This document shows, piece after piece, positions 18,837-28,967 of a DNA stretch of 64,000 nt (position 1 is its first letter; every line of letters begins with the position of its first letter). The position numbers and the translations under genes were made by a program. Origin of the DNA: Catellatospora methionotrophica (GTDB lineage: Bacteria > Actinomycetota > Actinomycetes > Mycobacteriales > Micromonosporaceae); assembly GCF_011297335.1 (NCBI RefSeq), contig NZ_JAAOTJ010000001.1, positions 1,178,001 to 1,242,000 on the forward strand, read 5' to 3'. The notes beneath the pieces are model-generated. The model ran no database searches and was not told the origin of the DNA. It saw only the letters and a program-made list of their open reading frames with translations.

Positions 18837-21341
18837 TTACGCGGGGAAGATGAACCAGTAGAACGTGGCCTTGGCGGTCTTGCCCGCCGCGTCGGTGACG
18901 GTCACGGTCGGGTTGGCGTTCTGCCAGGTCGTGGGTGTGCCGGAGATGACGCCGGTGGACTGGTTGATGCTCAGCCCGCCGGGCAGCCCGGTCGCGGTGA
19001 ACCGGTAGGGCGTCGTGCCGCCCGCGGCCCGCACGGTGAGGCTGACCGGGCGTCCGACGTACGACGTCTGCACGCCGGGGTTGGTGATGGTCAGGTTGCC
19101 GGGCGTGCCGCCGCCCTGGACGGTGAGGGTGAACGTGGTCTGCGCGCTGGACTGGCCGTCGTTGCCGGTGACGGTGACGGCGTAGGTGCCCGCCGGGGTG
19201 CCGGCGGTCGTCGACACCGACAGCGTCGACGACCCGCCGACCTCGATCGCGGTCGGCGAGAACGACGCGGTCGCGCCCGTCGGCAGGCCGCTCGCGGTCA
19301 GGGTGATGTCACCGGCGGGCGGATCGTTGCCGCCGGGCAGGTGCGGGGCGATGTCGGCGGCGTACGTCGACACCCGGGTGTAGACCGCGTACCAGTCACA
19401 GGCCGTCGACATCCACGAGAAGACGCCGACGACGGTGTTGCCGACCAGGAACGGGCCGCCGGAGTCGCCCTGGCAGGCGGCGGCATGCCCGTCGGCGTAA
19501 CCGGTGCAGATCATGGCCGGGGTCTTGTACTGGCCGGTGTAGCGGCCCTGGCAGCCGGAGTCGGGAGCCACCGGGATCGAGGCCTTGCGCAGGACGTCGC
19601 TGTACGTGTTGGCCCCGATCTTGCCCCAGCCGATGGAGACGCCCATGGTGCCCGGCGCGTTGCTTGCCGTGGAGGTGTTCAGCGTCGGGTAGGTCATGCC
19701 CGCGGGCACGGGCACGTCCCGGTCCAGGGTGACCACGGCGACGTCGGCGCCCTCGGACCAGTGCGAGTAGGACGGGTGGGTCCAGTACGAGGCGATCTCG
19801 GCGGTGAAGCCGGGGTCGTTGAGGTTGGTCGCCCCGTACACGTACCACTTGCGGCCGGGGCTCTCCAGCAGGCAGTGCGCGGCCGTGAGCACGGTGCGCG
19901 GACCCATCAGCGTCGACGAGCAGGACTGCTGGCCGGGGAAGCTGCTGCCCTCCCTGCGCTGGGAGATCATGAACGGGTTGGCCTCGACGGTGGTCGGCGT
20001 CCCACCCACGACCTGCGGCACCGCGCCGCCCTGTACGGCGCTGGCCGCGATGCGGGTGGTGGCGGTGCCACCGGCCTGCACGGTCGCCGACGCCGGGCTC
20101 GCCGACAGGCTGAAGTCACCGGTCGGCGGCGTCGGGTCGTCGTCGCCGGGCAGGTACAGCAGCTTGTTCGGGGTGCCCGAGGGCAGTCCGGTCAGGGTGC
20201 CGGTGGTCGCGTTGTCCATGATCCACGAGTGGACCTGGGCCGGGGTCGCGCCCGGCGTCGTGCTCAGGTGGCGCGCGACGGCACCGGCGACGTGCGGCGC
20301 GGCCATCGACGTGCCCGACATGGTCGTCGTGGCGGTGTCGGAGCTGTGGTACGCCGACAGGATGTTGCTGCCCGGCGCGTGCAGGTCCATGCAGGTGCCG
20401 TAGTTGGAGTCCCCGGCCTTGGTGTCGTTCGAGGTGACGTTGCCGACCTGCAGCGCCTCGGGGATCTGGCCGCCGGGGCCGTAGTTGCAGGCGTTGGAGC
20501 CGTTGTTGCCGGTGATCAGCGACCACTGGATGCCGGACTGGATCGACGAGCGGATGGCGTCGGCGGCGACGTCCGGGTCGTCGGTGTAGACCGACAGGTT
20601 CACCACCGCGGGCTTCTGCGCGTTCGCGGTGATCCACTCAGCGGCGCGGGCCACGTCGATGTCCTGGCCCATGCCGTTGCAGCCGAGCACGCGTACCGAC
20701 CAGAGGTTGGCCTTCTTGGCCACGCCGTAGGTCTTGCCCGCGGCGATGCCGGACACGTGGGTGCCGTGGCCGTGGCAGTCACCGCCGCTGGTCGACGGCG
20801 ACACGAAGTCGGTGCCGAGCTTGGCGCGTCCCTCGAACTCGCTGTGCGTGAACCGGATGCCGGTGTCGACGACGTAGATGTTGACGCCCTGCCCGGCCGC
20901 CGCGTCGTCGTAGTGGTAGGCGCGGTCCAGCGGCAGGTCCGCCTGGTCGACGCGGTCCAGGCCCCAGTTCGGCGGGTTGGGCTGGGTGACGCCGGTGGCG
21001 ATGCCCGCCGTGCCGGACTGGGTCACCGCCTCGACCTCGGGCCGGGCCGCGATCCGGCGGGCAGCCCGTTCCGACAGCCCTTCCAGGGCGTAGCCGGTCA
21101 TGGTGCGGGTGTAGACGGAGTGCAGCGTGCCGCCGTAACGGGCGACGGCCGCCTGCGCGCTGGCGCGCACGTCCTGCGCGGCCAGCGCCGAGGGCTTGAG
21201 GGTGATCAGGTATGAACCGGCGACCGGTTTGCGCGCCTGGACACGTACCGGGGCCTCCGGTTCGGCCCAGGCCGAGCCCGGTGTCAACGCCAGCAGCAGC
21301 GCGGCCAGACCGGCCGCCGCGAGCATGCGGGGGGTTCGCAT
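18837..21341 (-). CDS. Secreted dual protease: subtilisin (S8) plus chymotrypsin-fold (S1) domain
   Basis: This 834-residue protein has a signal peptide (residues 1-26), an inhibitor I9-like propeptide (about 42-107) and a proteinase-K-type S8 domain with D159 (VVDTG), H192 (HGTH) and S345 (GTSMA). A second protease follows: an S1 domain with VVGG at 444-447, H489 (TAAHC), D533 and S627 (GDSGG). Residues 409-440 and 678-742 look like the two halves of one Ig-like domain, so the S1 unit seems inserted within it. A He_PIG-like domain (about 748-832) ends the protein. The S1 specificity position (chymotrypsin 189) is A621, not Asp, so trypsin specificity is unlikely. Both triads look intact. Single gene. 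Confidence 0.93.
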   Translation of the reverse strand: MRTPRMLAAAGLAALLLALTPGSAWAEPEAPVRVQARKPVAGSYLITLKPSALAAQDVRASAQAAVARYGGTLHSVYTRTMTGYALEGLSERAARRIAARPEVEAVTQSGTAGIATGVTQPNPPNWGLDRVDQADLPLDRAYHYDDAAAGQGVNIYVVDTGIRFTHSEFEGRAKLGTDFVSPSTSGGDCHGHGTHVSGIAAGKTYGVAKKANLWSVRVLGCNGMGQDIDVARAAEWITANAQKPAVVNLSVYTDDPDVAADAIRSSIQSGIQWSLITGNNGSNACNYGPGGQIPEALQVGNVTSNDTKAGDSNYGTCMDLHAPGSNILSAYHSSDTATTTMSGTSMAAPHVAGAVARHLSTTPGATPAQVHSWIMDNATTGTLTGLPSGTPNKLLYLPGDDDPTPPTGDFSLSASPASATVQAGGTATTRIAASAVQGGAVPQVVGGTPTTVEANPFMISQRREGSSFPGQQSCSSTLMGPRTVLTAAHCLLESPGRKWYVYGATNLNDPGFTAEIASYWTHPSYSHWSEGADVAVVTLDRDVPVPAGMTYPTLNTSTASNAPGTMGVSIGWGKIGANTYSDVLRKASIPVAPDSGCQGRYTGQYKTPAMICTGYADGHAAACQGDSGGPFLVGNTVVGVFSWMSTACDWYAVYTRVSTYAADIAPHLPGGNDPPAGDITLTASGLPTGATASFSPTAIEVGGSSTLSVSTTAGTPAGTYAVTVTGNDGQSSAQTTFTLTVQGGGTPGNLTITNPGVQTSYVGRPVSLTVRAAGGTTPYRFTATGLPGGLSINQSTGVISGTPTTWQNANPTVTVTDAAGKTAKATFYWFIFPA

Positions 21342-21490: not shown

Positions 21491-22390
21491 TTACGCGTCC
21501 CAGTGCACGCCGACCACGCCGGGGCTGACGTTCTCCATGACCGCGACGGCCGCCTGCCCGCCGCCCAGCCACAGCTCCGCCGACTCCCGGTGGCTGTCGT
21601 CGAGACGGCGCTGCCGGTAGCGGAACACCCGCGACGGCACCCGCCCGGTGAACACGACCCGGCACGTCCACAACCGGCACCGGCGGGTGAACGTGCGGTA
21701 GTAGAAGTCGCTGTCCTCCTCGTCGGACACCCCGAAGTGCACCTCGTACTCCAGCAACGTCAGCTCACCGGCCGACAGGCGCTGGTCGAGCACCAGCTCG
21801 GCGACGCTGACCCGCCCCTCGGCGCGCACCCTGCCCAGCCGGCACTGCGCCAGCGCCTGCCACTGCGGCGGCGTGGTCATGCCATGGTTGGCCTGGTGGA
21901 ACACCACCGCGCGGCCCACGCCGTCGCACAGCGCGCGCACCACCAGCCGCACCCGCAGGGAGCGGCCCGCCTCGCCGACCACGAACACGTCGTCGACGGC
22001 CAGGAACTCCAGCTGCCCGTCGGGCGGCGCGTTCATCTGCGCCAGCAGCGCGGGCCGGGCGGGCCACAGCTGCCGCCGCGAACCCGACCCCGCCGGCCGA
22101 TGCGCCCACGGCTGCGCCCCGCCGCGCCCGCGCAGCAGCGCCGACAGCGCGCCCTGCGGCACGCCGAGCAGGTCCTCCAGCACCGGCAGCGCGGCCAGCG
22201 ACGCCCCGCGCTCGGGCCGGGACCTGCCCGAGCGCCAGTACGACAGGGTGGCCCGCGACAGGCGCACCTCGCGGTCGCGCAGCCGCGCCGACAGCCGTTC
22301 CAGCGTCATCCCGCTGGCCTCGATCGCGACGTCCAGCGCCAGCGAGAACGGCCCGGTCCGTAACGCCTGCGCGACATCGGGCTCCACCAT
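21491..22390 (-). CDS. XRE-like helix-turn-helix protein divergent from rph
   Basis: A 299-residue protein with an N-terminal helix-turn-helix (about residues 20-60: ASGMTLERLSARL followed by LSRATLSYWRSGRSRPER), typical of actinobacterial XRE-like regulators. About 100-299 form a beta-rich domain with no recognised enzyme motif. The ATG chosen has GCGAGG 8 bases upstream; an in-frame upstream extension is possible. It is divergent from the rifampicin phosphotransferase gene, and the 238-base gap contains the rifamycin-associated element. Whether it regulates, or is induced with, rph is unknown. Confidence 0.75.
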   Translation of the reverse strand: MVEPDVAQALRTGPFSLALDVAIEASGMTLERLSARLRDREVRLSRATLSYWRSGRSRPERGASLAALPVLEDLLGVPQGALSALLRGRGGAQPWAHRPAGSGSRRQLWPARPALLAQMNAPPDGQLEFLAVDDVFVVGEAGRSLRVRLVVRALCDGVGRAVVFHQANHGMTTPPQWQALAQCRLGRVRAEGRVSVAELVLDQRLSAGELTLLEYEVHFGVSDEEDSDFYYRTFTRRCRLWTCRVVFTGRVPSRVFRYRQRRLDDSHRESAELWLGGGQAAVAVMENVSPGVVGVHWDA

Positions 22391-22535: not shown

Positions 22536-22628
22536 GGGTCATGCCGCAGAATCGTCGACCGGACCAGGAACGGACGAATAATGGGGCATGACGGGCGTAT
22601 ACCGCCAGCTGCCCCGGAGGGTGTCGCA

Positions 22629-25226
22629 ATGATCGAACAGTACGTGTCAGACCTGCGGGACGTCGACGAAACGCAGCTCGCGACCGTCGGCGGCAAGGGC
22701 GCTCACCTGGGCGGACTGTCCCGGATCGACGGCATCGACGTGCCCGCCGGGTTCTGCGTTACCACGCACGCCTACCGGCGCATCATGGCGCAGGCGCCGT
22801 CGCTCGACGACCGGATCGACCAGCTCTCCCGGCTGAACCCCGACGACCGGGACGCCATCGGCGCGCTCAGCGCCGACATCCGCCGCACGATCGAAGAGAC
22901 CGCCATCCCGGACGATCTCGCGGCGGCGATCACCGGCGCACTCGCCCGGCTCGGCGAGCAGGCCGCCTACGCCGTACGGTCCAGCGCGACGGCCGAGGAC
23001 CTGCCGACGGCGTCCTTCGCCGGTCAGCAGGACACCTATCTCAACGTCATCGGCCCGGCCGCGATCCTCGGCCACGTCAGCCGGTGCTGGGCGTCGCTGT
23101 TCACCGAGCGGGCCGTCACGTACCGCCAGCGCAACGGCATCGACCACCGCACGGTCCACATGGCCGTGGTGGTGCAGCGGATGGTCTTCCCGGACGCGGC
23201 GGGCATCATGTTCACCGCCGACCCGATCACCGGCGACCGGCGACTCGCCACCGTGGAGGCCAGCTTCGGCCTCGGCGAGGCCCTGGTCTCCGGCCTGGTC
23301 AACCCGGACGTCTACCGGGTGCGCGACGGCGGGATCGTCACCAAGGCGATCGGCGCCAAGCAGCTCGCCGTCGTCGCCGCACCGACCGGCGGCACCCGGG
23401 AAGAACCGACCACCCCGGACCGGCAGGCCCAGCCCGCGCTGACAGACGCCCAGGCCGTAGCACTCGTCCAGCTCGGCCGGACGATCGAAGCCCACTTCGG
23501 CCGCCCCCAGGACATCGAATGGTGCCTGGCCGACGACGGTTTCCAGATCGTGCAGAGCCGCCCGATCACCACCCTGTTCCCCGTCCCGGAGACGGCCGAC
23601 AAGGAGAACCACGTCTACGTCTCCGTCGGCCACCAGCAGATGATGACCGACCCCATGAAGCCCCTCGGGCTGTCCTTCTGGCAGCTGACCACCCCCATGC
23701 CCATGGCGGTGGCCGGGGGCCGCCTGTTCGTCGACGTGACCCAGCGGGTGGCCACCCCGGCGACCCGCGACAGTTTCCTGGAACTCCTGGGCCGGTCCGA
23801 TCCGCTGATGGAGGACGCGCTGCGGACCGTGCTCGACCGCGACGGCTTCATCCATACGCTGCCCGGCGAGGGCGAGCCGGGGCCGCTGTTCGGCGGCACG
23901 CCCGATCCGATCGAGCCCGATCCGGCCCTCGTCGCCGAGCTGGTCGCGGCCAGCGAGGCCTCCGTCGCCACGGCGGCCCGCGACATCCGGGCGAAGTCCG
24001 GCGAGGCGCTGTTCGACTTCATCCTGGCCGACCTCCAGGAGCTGCGGCGGATCCTGTTCGACCGGCGCAGCCACCAGGTGTTCATGACGGCGATGGACGC
24101 CACGTGGTGGCTCAACGAGCACCTGGCGGCGTGGCTGGGCGAGAAGAACGCGGCGGACACGCTGACGCAGTCCGCGCCGCACAACGTCACCTCGGAGATG
24201 GGCCTGGCGCTGCTGGGCGTCGCGGACGTGATCCGCCCGTACCCGGAGGTGGTGGCGTATCTGCAGCACGCCGACGGTGACGACGTCCTGGACGGGCTCG
24301 CCGGGCTGACCGGCGGACCGCAGGCCCGCGACGCCATTGAGGCCTGGCTCGACCGGTACGGCATGCGCTGCGTCGGCGAGATCGACATCACCCGGCCCCG
24401 GTGGCGCGAGCACCCGTCGACGGTCGTGCCGATGATCCTCGGCAACGTCCGCAACTTCGCGCCGGGAGCGGGTGAGCAGCGTTTCGAGCAGGGGCGCCAC
24501 GAGGCCTGGGACAAGGAGCAGCAGGTGCTGGAGCGCCTGCGGGCGCTGCCGGACGGTGCGCAGAAGGCCGCCGAGACCAAGCAGATGATCGACCGGGTCC
24601 GCACGTTCATCGGCTACCGGGAGTACCCGAAGTACGCCATGGTCAGCCGGTACTTCGTCTACAAGCAGGCGCTGCTGGCCGAGGCCGAGCGGCTGGTGCG
24701 GTCCGGCGTGCTCCGCGAGCCGGAGGACAGCTTCTTCCTGACGTTCCAGGAACTGCACGACGTCGTACGCACGAACCGGGCCGACGACCGGCTCATCGAC
24801 CAGCGCAGGGAGGCGTTCAGGTCGTACGAGTCGCTCAAGCCGCCCCGCGTGCTGACCTCGGACGGCGAGGCCATCACGGGGAACTACCGGCGCGACGGCC
24901 TACCGGCCGGGGCGCTGGTCGGCCTGCCGGTCTCGGCGGGGACCGTCGAGGGGCGGGCGCGCGTCATCCTGGACATGGCGCACGCCGATCTCGCACCCGG
25001 CGACATCCTCGTCACCGCCCACACGGACCCGAGCTGGACACCGCTGTTCGTCGCCGTCGCCGGTCTGGTGACCGAGGTCGGCGGGCTGATGACGCACGGC
25101 GCGGTGATCGCCCGCGAGTACGGCCTGCCCGCGGTCGTCGGCGTGGTCGACGCCACCCGGCAGATCCGCGACGGCGAGCGCATCCGCGTACACGGCACCG
25201 ACGGGTACGTAGAGATCCTGTCCTGA
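22629..25226 (+). CDS. rph: Rifampicin phosphotransferase (RPH)
   Basis: An 865-residue, PEP-synthase-like enzyme matching the usual RPH length. An ATP-binding domain covers about residues 1-320 (VGGKGAHLGGLS, AVRSSATAEDLPTASFAGQQ, GIMFTADPITGDRR). A rifamycin-binding domain covers about 330-750 and a swivelling His domain about 770-865. The phosphate-carrying His is H823 in GGLMTHGAVIAREYG. RPH transfers the beta-phosphate of ATP to the C21 hydroxyl of rifamycins, releasing AMP and phosphate. The ATG has CGGAGG 8 bases upstream. The RAE-like palindrome upstream strongly supports rifamycin-inducible resistance rather than PEP synthase, which would be shorter and lack this middle domain. Confidence 0.95.
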   Translation: MIEQYVSDLRDVDETQLATVGGKGAHLGGLSRIDGIDVPAGFCVTTHAYRRIMAQAPSLDDRIDQLSRLNPDDRDAIGALSADIRRTIEETAIPDDLAAAITGALARLGEQAAYAVRSSATAEDLPTASFAGQQDTYLNVIGPAAILGHVSRCWASLFTERAVTYRQRNGIDHRTVHMAVVVQRMVFPDAAGIMFTADPITGDRRLATVEASFGLGEALVSGLVNPDVYRVRDGGIVTKAIGAKQLAVVAAPTGGTREEPTTPDRQAQPALTDAQAVALVQLGRTIEAHFGRPQDIEWCLADDGFQIVQSRPITTLFPVPETADKENHVYVSVGHQQMMTDPMKPLGLSFWQLTTPMPMAVAGGRLFVDVTQRVATPATRDSFLELLGRSDPLMEDALRTVLDRDGFIHTLPGEGEPGPLFGGTPDPIEPDPALVAELVAASEASVATAARDIRAKSGEALFDFILADLQELRRILFDRRSHQVFMTAMDATWWLNEHLAAWLGEKNAADTLTQSAPHNVTSEMGLALLGVADVIRPYPEVVAYLQHADGDDVLDGLAGLTGGPQARDAIEAWLDRYGMRCVGEIDITRPRWREHPSTVVPMILGNVRNFAPGAGEQRFEQGRHEAWDKEQQVLERLRALPDGAQKAAETKQMIDRVRTFIGYREYPKYAMVSRYFVYKQALLAEAERLVRSGVLREPEDSFFLTFQELHDVVRTNRADDRLIDQRREAFRSYESLKPPRVLTSDGEAITGNYRRDGLPAGALVGLPVSAGTVEGRARVILDMAHADLAPGDILVTAHTDPSWTPLFVAVAGLVTEVGGLMTHGAVIAREYGLPAVVGVVDATRQIRDGERIRVHGTDGYVEILS

Positions 25227-25383: not shown

Positions 25384-25433
25384 TTGACCGGCTCCGGTGG
25401 ATGCCCTACGGTACGCCTTGGTAAGCGCTTACC
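25384..25433 (+). promoter_or_regulatory. Promoter with overlapping LacI-type operator
   Basis: TTGACC (25384-25389) and TACGGT (25407-25412) are separated by exactly 17 bases. The perfect palindrome GGTAAGCGCTTACC (25420-25433) sits at the expected transcription start. An AAGCGCTT core is typical of LacI-family carbohydrate repressors, so repression relieved by a plant-sugar ligand is likely. The regulator is not in this window. The rest of 25227-25383 shows no feature. Confidence 0.75.
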
Positions 25434-25501
25434 CGATTACGCACCGTCCCATCACCACTTCCGAAACGGCTCATCGGCGGACCCTACGGAGGAAAACCAC
25501 C

Positions 25502-26767
25502 ATGCCATCACCCAGCTCCCCGAGGCGGCGTCCTCGGCTGCGCCTAGCCCTCGCGATCACCACGGTCGCCACCGTCGTCGGCGGCGTCGCCCTCGCCGCG
25601 ATGATGCCGGCGTCGGCCGCCACCATCGACACCAGCGCCTACTACCAGCTGGTCAACGTGTTCAGCGGCAAGGCGATCGAAGGCAGCAGCGGCGCGGTCG
25701 TCCAGCGCACCCCCGACAGCGCGGCGTCCAATCAGCAGTTCCAGTTCCTCGACATGGGCAGCGGCTACTACCGCCTCAAGTCGAAGGCCAGCGGCCGGGT
25801 CGTCGAGATCGCGGGCAGCAGCACCGCCGACGGCGCGACCGTCCAGATGAACACCGGCGCGGGCAGCACCGCCTACCAGCAGCAGTTCTCGTTGCTGGAC
25901 AACGGCAACAACGTGATCCGGTTCAAGAACCGCAACAGTGCCAAGACCCTCGACGTGTGGGAGTGGTCGTCGGCCGACGGCGCCCGCATCTCGCAGTTCC
26001 AGGACCTCAACGGCACCAACCAGCAGTTCCGCCTGGTCAAGGTGGGCAGCGGGACCAATCCGACGCCCACCCCGACCGGTGGCAGCGGCGGACCCAGCAC
26101 CACGTGGCCGACGTCGGCCGGGTCGGCCAGCGTCTCGGGCACGATCAGCGTGTCGGGCACCTTCGACGGCGGCATGAAGACCTACTGCTGCATCGGCGAC
26201 GGCGGCCAGGACGAGGGCCAGGACCCGATGTTCAAGCTGGCCAACGGCGCCACGCTGCAGAACGTCATCCTCGGCTCGCCCGCCGGTGACGGCGTGCACT
26301 GCGAGGGCACCTGCACGCTGCGCAACGTGTGGTGGAACGACATCGGCGAGGACGCCGCCACCTTCAAGGGCACCGGCGGCGGCACGTCGTACGTCATCGG
26401 CGGCGGCGCCCGGTCCGGCAGCGACAAGGTGTTCCAGCACAACGGCAACGGCACGGTGAGCATCAGCGGCTTCTACCTGAAGTCGGCGGGCAAGCTGTAC
26501 CGCGCCTGCGGCAACTGCTCCAGCTCGTACCAGCGCAACGTCAAGATCGATAATGTCATCCTGGACGACATCGACATGGTCGCCGGGATCAACACCAACT
26601 GGGGCGACACCGCCACCATCACCCGGGTCACCCTGATCAACAGCTCCAGCGCCACCGTCTGCGGCAAGTACAAGGGCGTGCCTAAGGGCAGCGAGCCCTC
26701 GTACCTCGGCGAGGGCTGGAACGACAGCAACTGCAAGGTCAAGCAGAGCGACATCACCTACCGGTAG
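25502..26767 (+). CDS. Secreted pectate lyase (PL3) with ricin-type carbohydrate-binding domain
   Basis: A 421-residue exported enzyme. The basic N-terminus and hydrophobic core (residues 17-40) form a signal peptide ending at ASA. About 46-170 form a ricin-type beta-trefoil (CBM13) with three QQF-like repeats. A Thr/Pro linker (about 180-190) follows, and about 195-421 form a family 3 pectate lyase. Conserved blocks include CCIGDGGQDEGQDPMF, HCEGTCTLRNVWW and EDAATFKG, which belong to the calcium-binding parallel beta-helix of PL3. It cleaves de-esterified polygalacturonate by beta-elimination outside the cell. ATG has GGAGG 9 bases upstream. A LacI-type operator precedes the gene, so pectin-derived sugars may induce it. 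Confidence 0.93.
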   Translation: MPSPSSPRRRPRLRLALAITTVATVVGGVALAAMMPASAATIDTSAYYQLVNVFSGKAIEGSSGAVVQRTPDSAASNQQFQFLDMGSGYYRLKSKASGRVVEIAGSSTADGATVQMNTGAGSTAYQQQFSLLDNGNNVIRFKNRNSAKTLDVWEWSSADGARISQFQDLNGTNQQFRLVKVGSGTNPTPTPTGGSGGPSTTWPTSAGSASVSGTISVSGTFDGGMKTYCCIGDGGQDEGQDPMFKLANGATLQNVILGSPAGDGVHCEGTCTLRNVWWNDIGEDAATFKGTGGGTSYVIGGGARSGSDKVFQHNGNGTVSISGFYLKSAGKLYRACGNCSSSYQRNVKIDNVILDDIDMVAGINTNWGDTATITRVTLINSSSATVCGKYKGVPKGSEPSYLGEGWNDSNCKVKQSDITYR

Positions 26768-26868: not shown

Positions 26869-28758
26869 TTACGGCAGCGAGTTCAGCACGATCGCGCCGA
26901 TGTCACGGCCGAGCTGGGTGGTGCTCTGGGTGCCGGAGCGGTCGTTCATCATGACCGCCACCACGATGCCGTCCTCGGGGTAGATCCTCAGGTAGGCGAG
27001 GGTGCCCGTCCACGAACCGTCCTTGGCGACCACGGGGTGCCCGTTCTCGGTGCCGGTGCTCCAGCCGTAGGCGTAACCGCTGTCGGCATCCGGCGCGGTC
27101 CACATGGTGTCGCGCGACGTCTGGGTCAGGATCTGGCCCGCCGCGAGCTTCGCGCCGAACCGGCCCAGGTCGTACACGTTGGACTGGATGCCGCCGCCGA
27201 GGGTCTTCCAGTCCTTGTTCTCCAGCGCCACCTCCGCGTTGCCGTCGGTGTACATCGTCATCCGCCGGACCGCGGCGCTCATGTCCGCCGGCGCGAGCGT
27301 GCCGAGACCGTACGCGTTGGTCAGCTTCGTACGGACCAGGTTCTTGACGTTGTCACCGGCGGCCGCCTCCAGGTCCGCGCCGAGCAGGGTGTAGCCGAGG
27401 GTCGTGTAGTAGTAGTCCGGCGGGTTGCACACCAGCGGCTCGTCCCAGAACTCGTCCGCGGCGGCCAGCGCCGTCGCGTACGGCAGGTTGTCGAACCCCG
27501 AGGTGTCGATGTCGCCGTAGTCGCCGATGCAGCCGCGGTTGGCCAGCAGGTCGCCGACGGTGTGGGTGTGGTGCGCCGGCATCGCCGGCACCAGGTCACG
27601 GCTCTCGTCGTCGAGGTCGACCAGCCCCTGCTCGACCATCCGCATCGTCAGCACACCCGCGACGGCCTTGCTCACCGACGCGAGCCCGCCGACGTGCTCG
27701 CTGTCCATCCACACGTTGTCGCCGATGTCGGCGAAACCGAAGCCGCGCAGGTACTTCGGCTGGTTGTTGTGGAACACGGCCACGCTGATGCCGGGCACCG
27801 CGGTGCTGTCCAGCTCGGTCTGGACGCGGGCGTCGACGGCGTTCTTCAGCTTCCAGTCCGGCCGGTCGTTGTTCTGCCGCCAGATCCCGGCGTACCGCAC
27901 GCCGCCCGCCGTGTCGTACTTGTTGTACGCCACCAGCCGGTAGCCTTCGTCGGAGTAGCGGTGCCAGTAGTTGCCGAACATCGTCGCGGTCATGTCACGG
28001 CGCTCGGCCCAGCCACGGCCGTTGCGGTTCTCCACCCAGATCCCCGCGTAACGCTGACCCGCGCTGATCCGCAGCGACTCGAAGGCCAGCATCCGGTACT
28101 CGCGCTGGAGCTCGGCGAACTTCGTCGAGAACTCGGCCGAGGTCAGGTCCCGCCACAGCACCCACGCGAGGTTCTCGGCGTTCTGCACCCAGACCACGGA
28201 GTAGCGCAGGCCCTGCGACGTGTCGTACACGTCGATGTCGATCGGCATCCGCCCGGCGCGGCGCTGCTCGTCGAACCTCGTCGAGAACTCGGCGCTGGTC
28301 AGCCCCCGGAACGAGGTCCAGGACAGGCCCTCCACGTTCTTGACCCACACCCCGGCCCAGCGCCGTACGCCGCCCACCAGGTAGGTCTCCTGCTCGGTCA
28401 GCCGCATCCCCTGCCCGGCGGCCTCGCTCCACGCGGCGGCGAATCCCGCGTCGTCGAGGTCACGCAGCTCCTTCCAGGCCCGGCCGTCGGTGTTGTACTG
28501 CCACACCGAGCCGACGCGGTAGTCGCCGCCGGTGGTGTCGATGTCCAGGTCGTCGATCAGGTACCCGTTCTTGCTGTTCGCGGTGAACGAGGTCGCGAAC
28601 TGGGCACTGGTCTGGTCGCGCAGCGAGAGCCACGAGACCGCGTTCGGGTCGAAGACCGGGGACGGCACGCCCGGCACCGCCTGGGCCGGCACGCCGCTCA
28701 GTGCCGCGCCGGCCAGGGTCGTCGCCAGCACGACGGCTATCCGTCTGCGCATGGTCAT
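26869..28758 (-). CDS. Secreted serine hydrolase (beta-lactamase/PBP fold) with five tandem repeats
   Basis: A 629-residue exported protein. The signal peptide ends near A27. Five repeats of about 51 residues cover 42-300, each starting with a W-x-x-x-R-D/G segment and ending in Y-x-x-x-W-x-x-N; they match the bacterial tandem repeat domain often attached to serine hydrolases. A beta-lactamase-type domain covers about 310-629 with S361-x-x-K364 (SVSK). The third motif is atypical (KDGSWTG). It probably cleaves or transfers a D-Ala peptide, ester or similar bond outside the cell. ATG has GGGAG 6 bases upstream. It is divergent from the XRE-SARP regulator across 209 bases, which may control it. 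Confidence 0.88.
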   Translation of the reverse strand: MTMRRRIAVVLATTLAGAALSGVPAQAVPGVPSPVFDPNAVSWLSLRDQTSAQFATSFTANSKNGYLIDDLDIDTTGGDYRVGSVWQYNTDGRAWKELRDLDDAGFAAAWSEAAGQGMRLTEQETYLVGGVRRWAGVWVKNVEGLSWTSFRGLTSAEFSTRFDEQRRAGRMPIDIDVYDTSQGLRYSVVWVQNAENLAWVLWRDLTSAEFSTKFAELQREYRMLAFESLRISAGQRYAGIWVENRNGRGWAERRDMTATMFGNYWHRYSDEGYRLVAYNKYDTAGGVRYAGIWRQNNDRPDWKLKNAVDARVQTELDSTAVPGISVAVFHNNQPKYLRGFGFADIGDNVWMDSEHVGGLASVSKAVAGVLTMRMVEQGLVDLDDESRDLVPAMPAHHTHTVGDLLANRGCIGDYGDIDTSGFDNLPYATALAAADEFWDEPLVCNPPDYYYTTLGYTLLGADLEAAAGDNVKNLVRTKLTNAYGLGTLAPADMSAAVRRMTMYTDGNAEVALENKDWKTLGGGIQSNVYDLGRFGAKLAAGQILTQTSRDTMWTAPDADSGYAYGWSTGTENGHPVVAKDGSWTGTLAYLRIYPEDGIVVAVMMNDRSGTQSTTQLGRDIGAIVLNSLP

Positions 28759-28967
28759 GATGCACTCCCAACGTCTGATGGGCCCGTCCGGCACGGGGTG
28801 GGCCGGACAGGAGACACCGTGCGCCGGTTCGCGGCCGCACGTCGCCGATCCTGAACCCGGCTGAACGCGCGGGCTGAACATCGTTGAACACGCGGCTGCG
28901 CTGAAGCATCGAGCGAGGCCGCTAGATTGAGCCCGACAACGGCTGTCGCGTCAGGAGGGTGAACCGG

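What the first reader, a model, noticed from the sequence alone, without database searches (positions are those of the whole stretch)
18837..21341. One secreted protein carries both a subtilisin and a chymotrypsin-fold protease
Residues D159/H192/S345 form an intact S8 triad and H489/D533/S627 an intact S1 triad in the same 834-residue chain. The S1 part (about 441-670) lies between residues 409-440 (the start of an Ig-like repeat common in actinomycete proteases) and residues 678-742 (its continuation). It therefore looks like a domain inserted into a loop of an existing domain. The pairing of two unrelated serine proteases in one exported protein is rare.
Basis: partly seen in the sequence, partly recalled or inferred. 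Interest (0 to 1): 0.75.

Follow-up and report, generated by a model that had tools for sequence, protein, structure and literature searches.

The report
Chymotrypsin-fold protease nested in subtilisin's Ig domain
A soil actinomycete encodes one secreted protein holding two unrelated protein-cutting enzymes, one of them set into a loop of the other's accessory domain; a few relatives share the design, which may be a two-stage enzyme that switches itself on.

Summary
Confirmed, and extended. The 834-residue ORF (18837-21341, minus) encodes an aqualysin/proteinase K-type S8 protease and a chymotrypsin-fold S1 protease, both with intact triads, in one chain with a signal peptide. S1 sits in the B-C loop of an Ig-like domain: a profile of intact homologous Ig repeats matches the flanks at 2-49 (running into the linker; 2-30 to 2-33 in orthologues) and 33-99, and predicted strands of the two parts (A, A', B | C-G) fall where an intact repeat has them. 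The gene is real: three orthologues (79-90% identity), purifying selection on both proteases. In the family (354 genomes) 7 carry the nested S1, in three architectures: S8-Ig/S1-HePIG (4), S8-Ig-Ig/S1-tail (2), and one with a sedolisin-type protease in place of S8. In two other genera the S8-Ig and S1 proteases are separate genes 27 and 61 bp apart. A conserved putative regulator gene neighbours all seven. Most likely mechanism: S1 is exported as a zymogen; a cut before Val444 (conserved VV[GN]G) activates it, and the bisected Ig may hold the nicked halves together. Cut and clamp are inferred, not shown. New variant of a known kind.

The parts
18837..21341 (-). Gene for the 834-aa S8-[Ig/S1]-HePIG exoprotease
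21264..21341 (-). Sec-type signal peptide, residues 1-26 (by eye: basic start, hydrophobic core, AWA|EP; no predictor was run)
   Evidence: inference
21015..21215 (-). I9-like propeptide, residues 43-109 (Pfam match below its cut-off; just above it in orthologue L049)
20148..20984 (-). S8 (aqualysin/proteinase K-type) catalytic domain, residues 120-398; triad D159/H192/S345
20022..20117 (-). First part of split Ig-like domain, residues 409-440 (strands A, A', B)
19347..20012 (-). Inserted S1 chymotrypsin-fold domain, residues 444-665; triad H489/D533/S627; VVGG at 444-447; Ala at the 189 position
19116..19316 (-). Second part of split Ig-like domain, residues 676-742 (strands C-G)
18855..19091 (-). 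C-terminal He_PIG Ig domain, residues 751-829
21491..22390 (-). Conserved neighbour gene, 299 aa, putative helix-turn-helix regulator (HTH_3 at 18.0 bits, cut-off 23)

Best explanation
A secreted bifunctional exoprotease in which a chymotrypsin-fold (S1) zymogen is nested in the B-C loop of the first Ig-like domain behind a subtilisin-like (S8) protease. Shown by sequence: both triads, the nesting, its conservation in relatives, and a neighbouring two-gene form in other genera. Inferred: the chain is exported by its signal peptide; the I9-like propeptide assists folding and is cut off so that S8 becomes active; S1 stays a zymogen until the chain is cut in the flexible linker before Val444, freeing the VVGG end to pair with D626 (position 194), the cutter being the S8 domain in cis or trans or another secreted protease. 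That cut opens the chain inside the Ig: strands A-A'-B stay on S8 and C-G on S1. If the ten cysteines pair inside their own domains, as in homologues, only the Ig sandwich could hold the two enzymes together. The lack of Asp189 and the residue at 216 predict a non-tryptic, small-residue preference that would complement the broad S8. Likely role: breakdown of extracellular protein.
For: Triads and domains; both folds recovered by Foldseek on the model (aqualysin 4dzt TMt 0.83; S. erythraea trypsin 5dj7 TMt 0.84). Largely complementary Ig parts. Strands 411-415, 418-422, 426-434 | 679-684, 690-695, 704-711, 718-727, 732-742 in the P0001 model fall, after register, at intact-Ig strands 2-8, 11-14, 19-30 | 35-41, 47-52, 61-68, 75-84, 89-98 (pLDDT 97.9). 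VV[GN]G, D194 and S195 are invariant in 7 of 7 nested domains; both linkers have pLDDT under 50 (435-445, 670-677). Ten Cys: four in S8, six in S1, none elsewhere; the four in S8 align with Cys of aqualysin. In G017 and G049 an S8-Ig gene is followed on the same strand by a separate S1 gene with gaps of 61 and 27 bp, which links the two enzymes. Purifying selection on both.
Against: No activity, processing or coordinate-level structure was seen; the model has pTM 0.50 and an alignment of 33 rows. The first Ig part is a weak match (15-22 bits) and in G008 and G001 it did not reach the threshold, their second part matching from HMM 21-23 on, over linker residues. The residue before VVGG is Gln, Ala or Gly, so the activating protease cannot be named; S8 is only a candidate. 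In the S1 tree the nested domains of G008/G001 group with stand-alone S1 proteins; a single nested S1 clade is rejected at p-AU 0.0135, although the split Ig domains fall together (70/96). Nothing shows that a nicked Ig holds.
Confidence: 0.55

Rival explanations
1. Secreted polyprotein: the nesting is only a delivery format. After export the linkers around S1 are cut and S8 and S1 act as independent enzymes; the Ig falls apart or is degraded.
For: Both flanks of S1 are low-confidence linkers (435-445, 670-677); the two enzymes exist as separate genes in G017 and G049; secreted proteases often lose appendages (general knowledge).
Against: The Ig parts keep their strands and are under purifying selection (dN/dS 0.10-0.53 over 26 and 67 codons); the position between strands B and C is kept in 7 of 7 nested proteins of three architectures.
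Confidence: 0.3
2. The split Ig arose by end-to-end recombination of two genes that each carried Ig remnants, and its two parts do not form one sandwich.
For: Ig repeats of this type follow metallopeptidase-like sequences at seven other places in this genome (identified by eye as M14, M4 and M28), and a chain of S1 followed by Ig repeats exists (G600, L076).
Against: The two parts together cover the profile with overlap only in the linker; the second part alone lacks strands A and B; strand positions match an intact Ig.
Confidence: 0.1
3. Only one of the two proteases is functional; the other is a decaying or regulatory passenger.
For: Activity could not be tested here.
Against: Both triads intact; S1 dN/dS 0.16-0.20 and S8 0.24-0.32 against three orthologues; the S1 triad residues are kept in all seven nested S1 domains.
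Confidence: 0.05
4. Assembly or frame artefact.
For: None found.
Against: Same full-length chain in four assemblies of three genera, the window's included; third-position GC 0.89-0.99 in every domain.
Confidence: 0.01

Closest known systems
Aqualysin I / proteinase K group (peptidase family S8)
   Same: Catalytic domain and its four cysteines; I9-like propeptide (weak)
   Different: An Ig-like domain bearing an S1 protease follows; the plain form without such partners is recalled
Saccharopolyspora erythraea trypsin (4m7g, 5dj7; peptidase family S1)
   Same: Fold, VVGG/IVGG start, GDSGGP, six cysteines
   Different: No Asp189 (Ala), Met at 216; embedded in an Ig loop
Vibrio cholerae VesB (4lk4; S1 followed by an Ig-fold domain)
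   Same: S1 plus an Ig-fold domain in one chain (Foldseek hit of both models; its architecture is recalled)
   Different: There the Ig follows S1; here S1 lies inside the Ig and a second protease is present
Polyserases (several S1 domains in one human chain; PMC1435904, search listing and start of abstract only)
   Same: More than one protease domain per polypeptide
   Different: All S1, in tandem; not two unrelated families and not nested
Thermopsin-subtilisin chain in Thermoplasma (PMC2605481, passage seen)
   Same: Two unrelated protease-type modules in one prokaryotic chain
   Different: Different partner family; [quoted passage not shown]

Membership tests
Peptidase family S8 (proteinase K-like) | Asp/His/Ser triad in DTG, HGTH and GTSMA motifs | tested here: met
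Peptidase family S8 (proteinase K-like) | Subtilisin fold | tested here: met
   Foldseek on the predicted model: 4dzt TMt 0.83
Peptidase family S8 (proteinase K-like) | I9-type propeptide | tested here: inconclusive
   16.6 bits, cut-off 21.2; 21.4 bits in orthologue L049, 18.2 in L055
Peptidase family S1 (chymotrypsin fold) | His/Asp/Ser triad, TAAHC and GDSGGP | tested here: met
Peptidase family S1 (chymotrypsin fold) | IVGG-type start and Asp194 used in zymogen activation | tested here: met
   VV[GN]G and GDSG in 7 of 7 nested domains
Trypsin (Lys/Arg specificity) | Asp189 in the pocket | tested here: not met
   Ala, Gly or Ser in 7 of 7
Bipartite (domain-inserted) Ig-like domain | Two sequence parts completing one domain profile | tested here: met
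   P0001: HMM 2-49 (tail in the linker) and 33-99; G069: 2-28 and 34-99; first part under threshold in G008 and G001
Bipartite (domain-inserted) Ig-like domain | Strands of the two parts pair in one sandwich | tested here: inconclusive
   Strand positions match; pairing itself not visible
Two-enzyme protease | Both sites active | not testable with these tools
   -

The most novel reading that the evidence does not exclude
A protease cascade folded into one molecule: the subtilisin part activates the nested chymotrypsin-fold zymogen by cutting inside the Ig domain, and the cut Ig acts as a non-covalent clamp that keeps both enzymes together. The nested Ig/S1 unit behaves as an exchangeable cassette that has been combined with two different clan-SB proteases (S8 and S53).
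Probability: 0.25. Interest if true: 0.75.

Novelty: new variant of a known kind. Interest (0 to 1): 0.5.

Why it matters
Two unrelated active sites in one chain, one of them set into an accessory domain of the other, is unusual, and here the comparison forms exist in living relatives: uninterrupted Ig domains, an adjacent two-gene form, and a form with a different partner protease. If the split Ig clamps a nicked chain, it is a natural design for a self-activating two-enzyme particle, testable with one expressed protein.

Tried and rejected
Misassembly was rejected (orthologues in other assemblies). Trypsin specificity was rejected (no Asp189). A single origin of the nested S1 domains was neither upheld nor dismissed: the S1 tree is against it (p-AU 0.0135, group named after the tree was seen), the split-Ig tree mildly for it (70/96). 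The first full-length alignment (A2) misplaced the first Ig part of two rows; those rows were trimmed before the model (A3). PLSDB plasmids gave 396 records, none covering 80% of the query; the 20 listed cover at most 45%, over the S8 part. Eight paper searches showed no description of S8 plus S1 in one chain, but five of them returned no paper at all because their term sets were strict, and the library lacks most subscription papers; only passages of PMC2605481 were seen. InterPro and MEROPS could not be queried. The S8 list of the genus search was cut off in the output, so the co-occurrence count rests on Pfam scans of the 23 other large S1 frames (one of them, L093, showed an alpha-lytic prodomain but no Trypsin match at E 0.001); the 88 S1 matches in frames of 600 aa or less were not scanned.

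Full report
Observation. The ORF at 18837-21341 on the minus strand encodes 834 residues. Pfam finds Peptidase_S8 at 150-384, Trypsin at 444-661 covering profile positions 1-217 of 220, and He_PIG at 751-829; the I9 propeptide is below its cut-off. Foldseek on the AlphaFold model recovers both folds (4dzt TMt 0.83; 5dj7 TMt 0.84).

Nesting. I built a profile from eight intact Ig repeats of relatives (99 aa). Intact repeats match it over nearly its whole length. In the window protein it matches 409-454 at positions 2-49 (19.9 bits; the tail runs into the linker and the S1 start) and 676-742 at 33-99 (60.5 bits); in three orthologues the first match is 2-30, 2-33 and 2-32; in G069 it is 2-28 with 34-99; in G008 and G001 only the second part reached the threshold (from 23 or 21 to 99), though their first part aligns with the others. 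An AlphaFold model of an intact repeat (pLDDT 97.9) has strands at 2-8, 11-14, 19-30, 35-41, 47-52, 55-57, 61-68, 75-84 and 89-98. The full-length model (mean pLDDT 77.1, pTM 0.50) has strands at 411-415, 418-422 and 426-434 before S1 and at 679-684, 690-695, 704-711, 718-727 and 732-742 after it: the same strands once register is applied, except that the short strand 55-57 is only two residues there. S1 therefore occupies the B-C loop. The nearest solved folds of the intact repeat are modest hits (best E 2.3e-4), among them domains of cucumisin and of the Micromonospora viridifaciens sialidase.

Relatives. The window's genus contains Catellatospora coxensis (G003 and L048 share contig length and position). 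In 354 genomes of the family, 7 hold the complete nested unit: G000, G003, G001, G008 (same genus), G019, G053 (Dactylosporangium siamense, L049) and G069, in four genera; six candidates per genome were scored. Class and phylum samples of 394 and 396 genomes, which overlap in part, gave no other nested case at E limits of 1e-60 and 1e-45 with five candidates scored each; G600 has S1 followed by three Ig repeats, not nested. The seven fall into three architectures: S8-[Ig/S1]-HePIG (four); S8-Ig-[Ig/S1]-tail with a sub-threshold CBM_4_9 match in one (G008, G001); and, in G069, a pro-kumamolisin-activated sedolisin (Pfam sees only the activation domain; the S53 motifs GTSLSAP and E-x3-D are recognised by recall) -Ig-[Ig/S1]-HePIG. 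In G017 and G049 the S8 gene carries two or three uninterrupted Ig repeats and a similar tail, and a separate S1 gene with a proprotein-convertase P domain follows 61 and 27 bp downstream. The genome-contig scan gave four loci: two full-length and two with S8 and He_PIG only.

History. The S8 domains of the six fused S8 proteins group together (94/98) next to G017/G049 (81/75). The seven split Ig domains fall on one side of a branch (70/96), and the intact Ig1 of G008 and G069 are sisters (99/97), which suggests that the S53 and S8 forms share an Ig-Ig/S1 block. The S1 domains disagree: those of G008/G001 group with the separate S1 proteins of G017, G049 and G600 (99/96), and one nested clade is rejected at p-AU 0.0135. 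Either the nested S1 core was exchanged once, or the same loop was entered twice, or the tree errs.

Gene neighbourhood. A 299-residue protein with a sub-threshold HTH_3 match lies 149 bp upstream in the window. tblastn found a relative in 10 of 13 fetched loci (L048 and L066 being the same region): upstream on the same strand in the window-type genes, downstream and convergent in G008, G001 and G069, in part (cut by the locus end) in G017 and G049, and downstream of a Kribbella S8-HePIG gene; none in L051, L054 or L064. That this neighbour regulates the protease is inference.

Rarity in the genus. PF00089 gave 115 matches at E 1e-10 in 11 genomes; 27 lie in frames over 600 aa; 4 of these are the fused S8 proteins and none of the other 23 shows an S8 domain.

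Function. Purifying selection acts on both proteases (dN/dS 0.24-0.32 for S8, 0.16-0.20 for S1, three orthologues). The S1 start VV[GN]G and Asp194 are kept in all seven; established knowledge of chymotrypsin zymogens says that this start must be freed for activity. The cut would lie between Ig strands B and C. All ten cysteines lie in S8 (4) and S1 (6); if they pair within their domains as in homologues, no disulphide ties the parts. Hence the proposal of an Ig clamp, which is the bold part. The pocket has Ala, Gly or Ser at 189 and Met, Leu or Asp at 216, arguing against trypsin specificity.

Literature. The searches named under Tried and rejected showed no chain of this kind; a survey of prokaryotic serine proteases (PMC2605481, passages only) mentions thermopsin plus subtilisin in Thermoplasma but, in the passages seen, not trypsin plus subtilisin.

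Noticed in passing
window 21491-22390 minus; L048, L049, L050, L052, L053, L061, L062, L063, L065: A conserved 299-aa putative HTH protein lies beside all seven nested genes, in part beside the two-gene form, and beside an unfused Kribbella S8 gene.
   Followed up: partly
L061 975-4310: A sedolisin-type (S53) protease fused to the same Ig/S1 unit: a second pairing of unrelated serine proteases in one chain.
   Followed up: partly
G006:C1:1329304-1336155 and G001:C12:83796-94348: Separate S8 and S1 genes (S1 with FG-GAP-like repeats) lie close together in two Catellatospora genomes.
   Followed up: no
L097 2785-6204; L094 423-4607; L095 4021-8136: S1 domain in one chain with a GH10 glycosidase and LamG-like domains; S1-type domain in one chain with nSTAND1 and WD40-like repeats.
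   Followed up: no
window 25397-26767 plus and 26869-28881 minus: Pectate lyase with ricin-type lectin repeats, and a beta-lactamase-fold protein with polyglycine-hydrolase-like repeats, near the protease: a patch of likely exoenzymes.
   Followed up: no
window 22581-25226 plus: PPDK_N plus PEP-utilizer protein, resembling rifampin phosphotransferase (recalled resemblance only).
   Followed up: no
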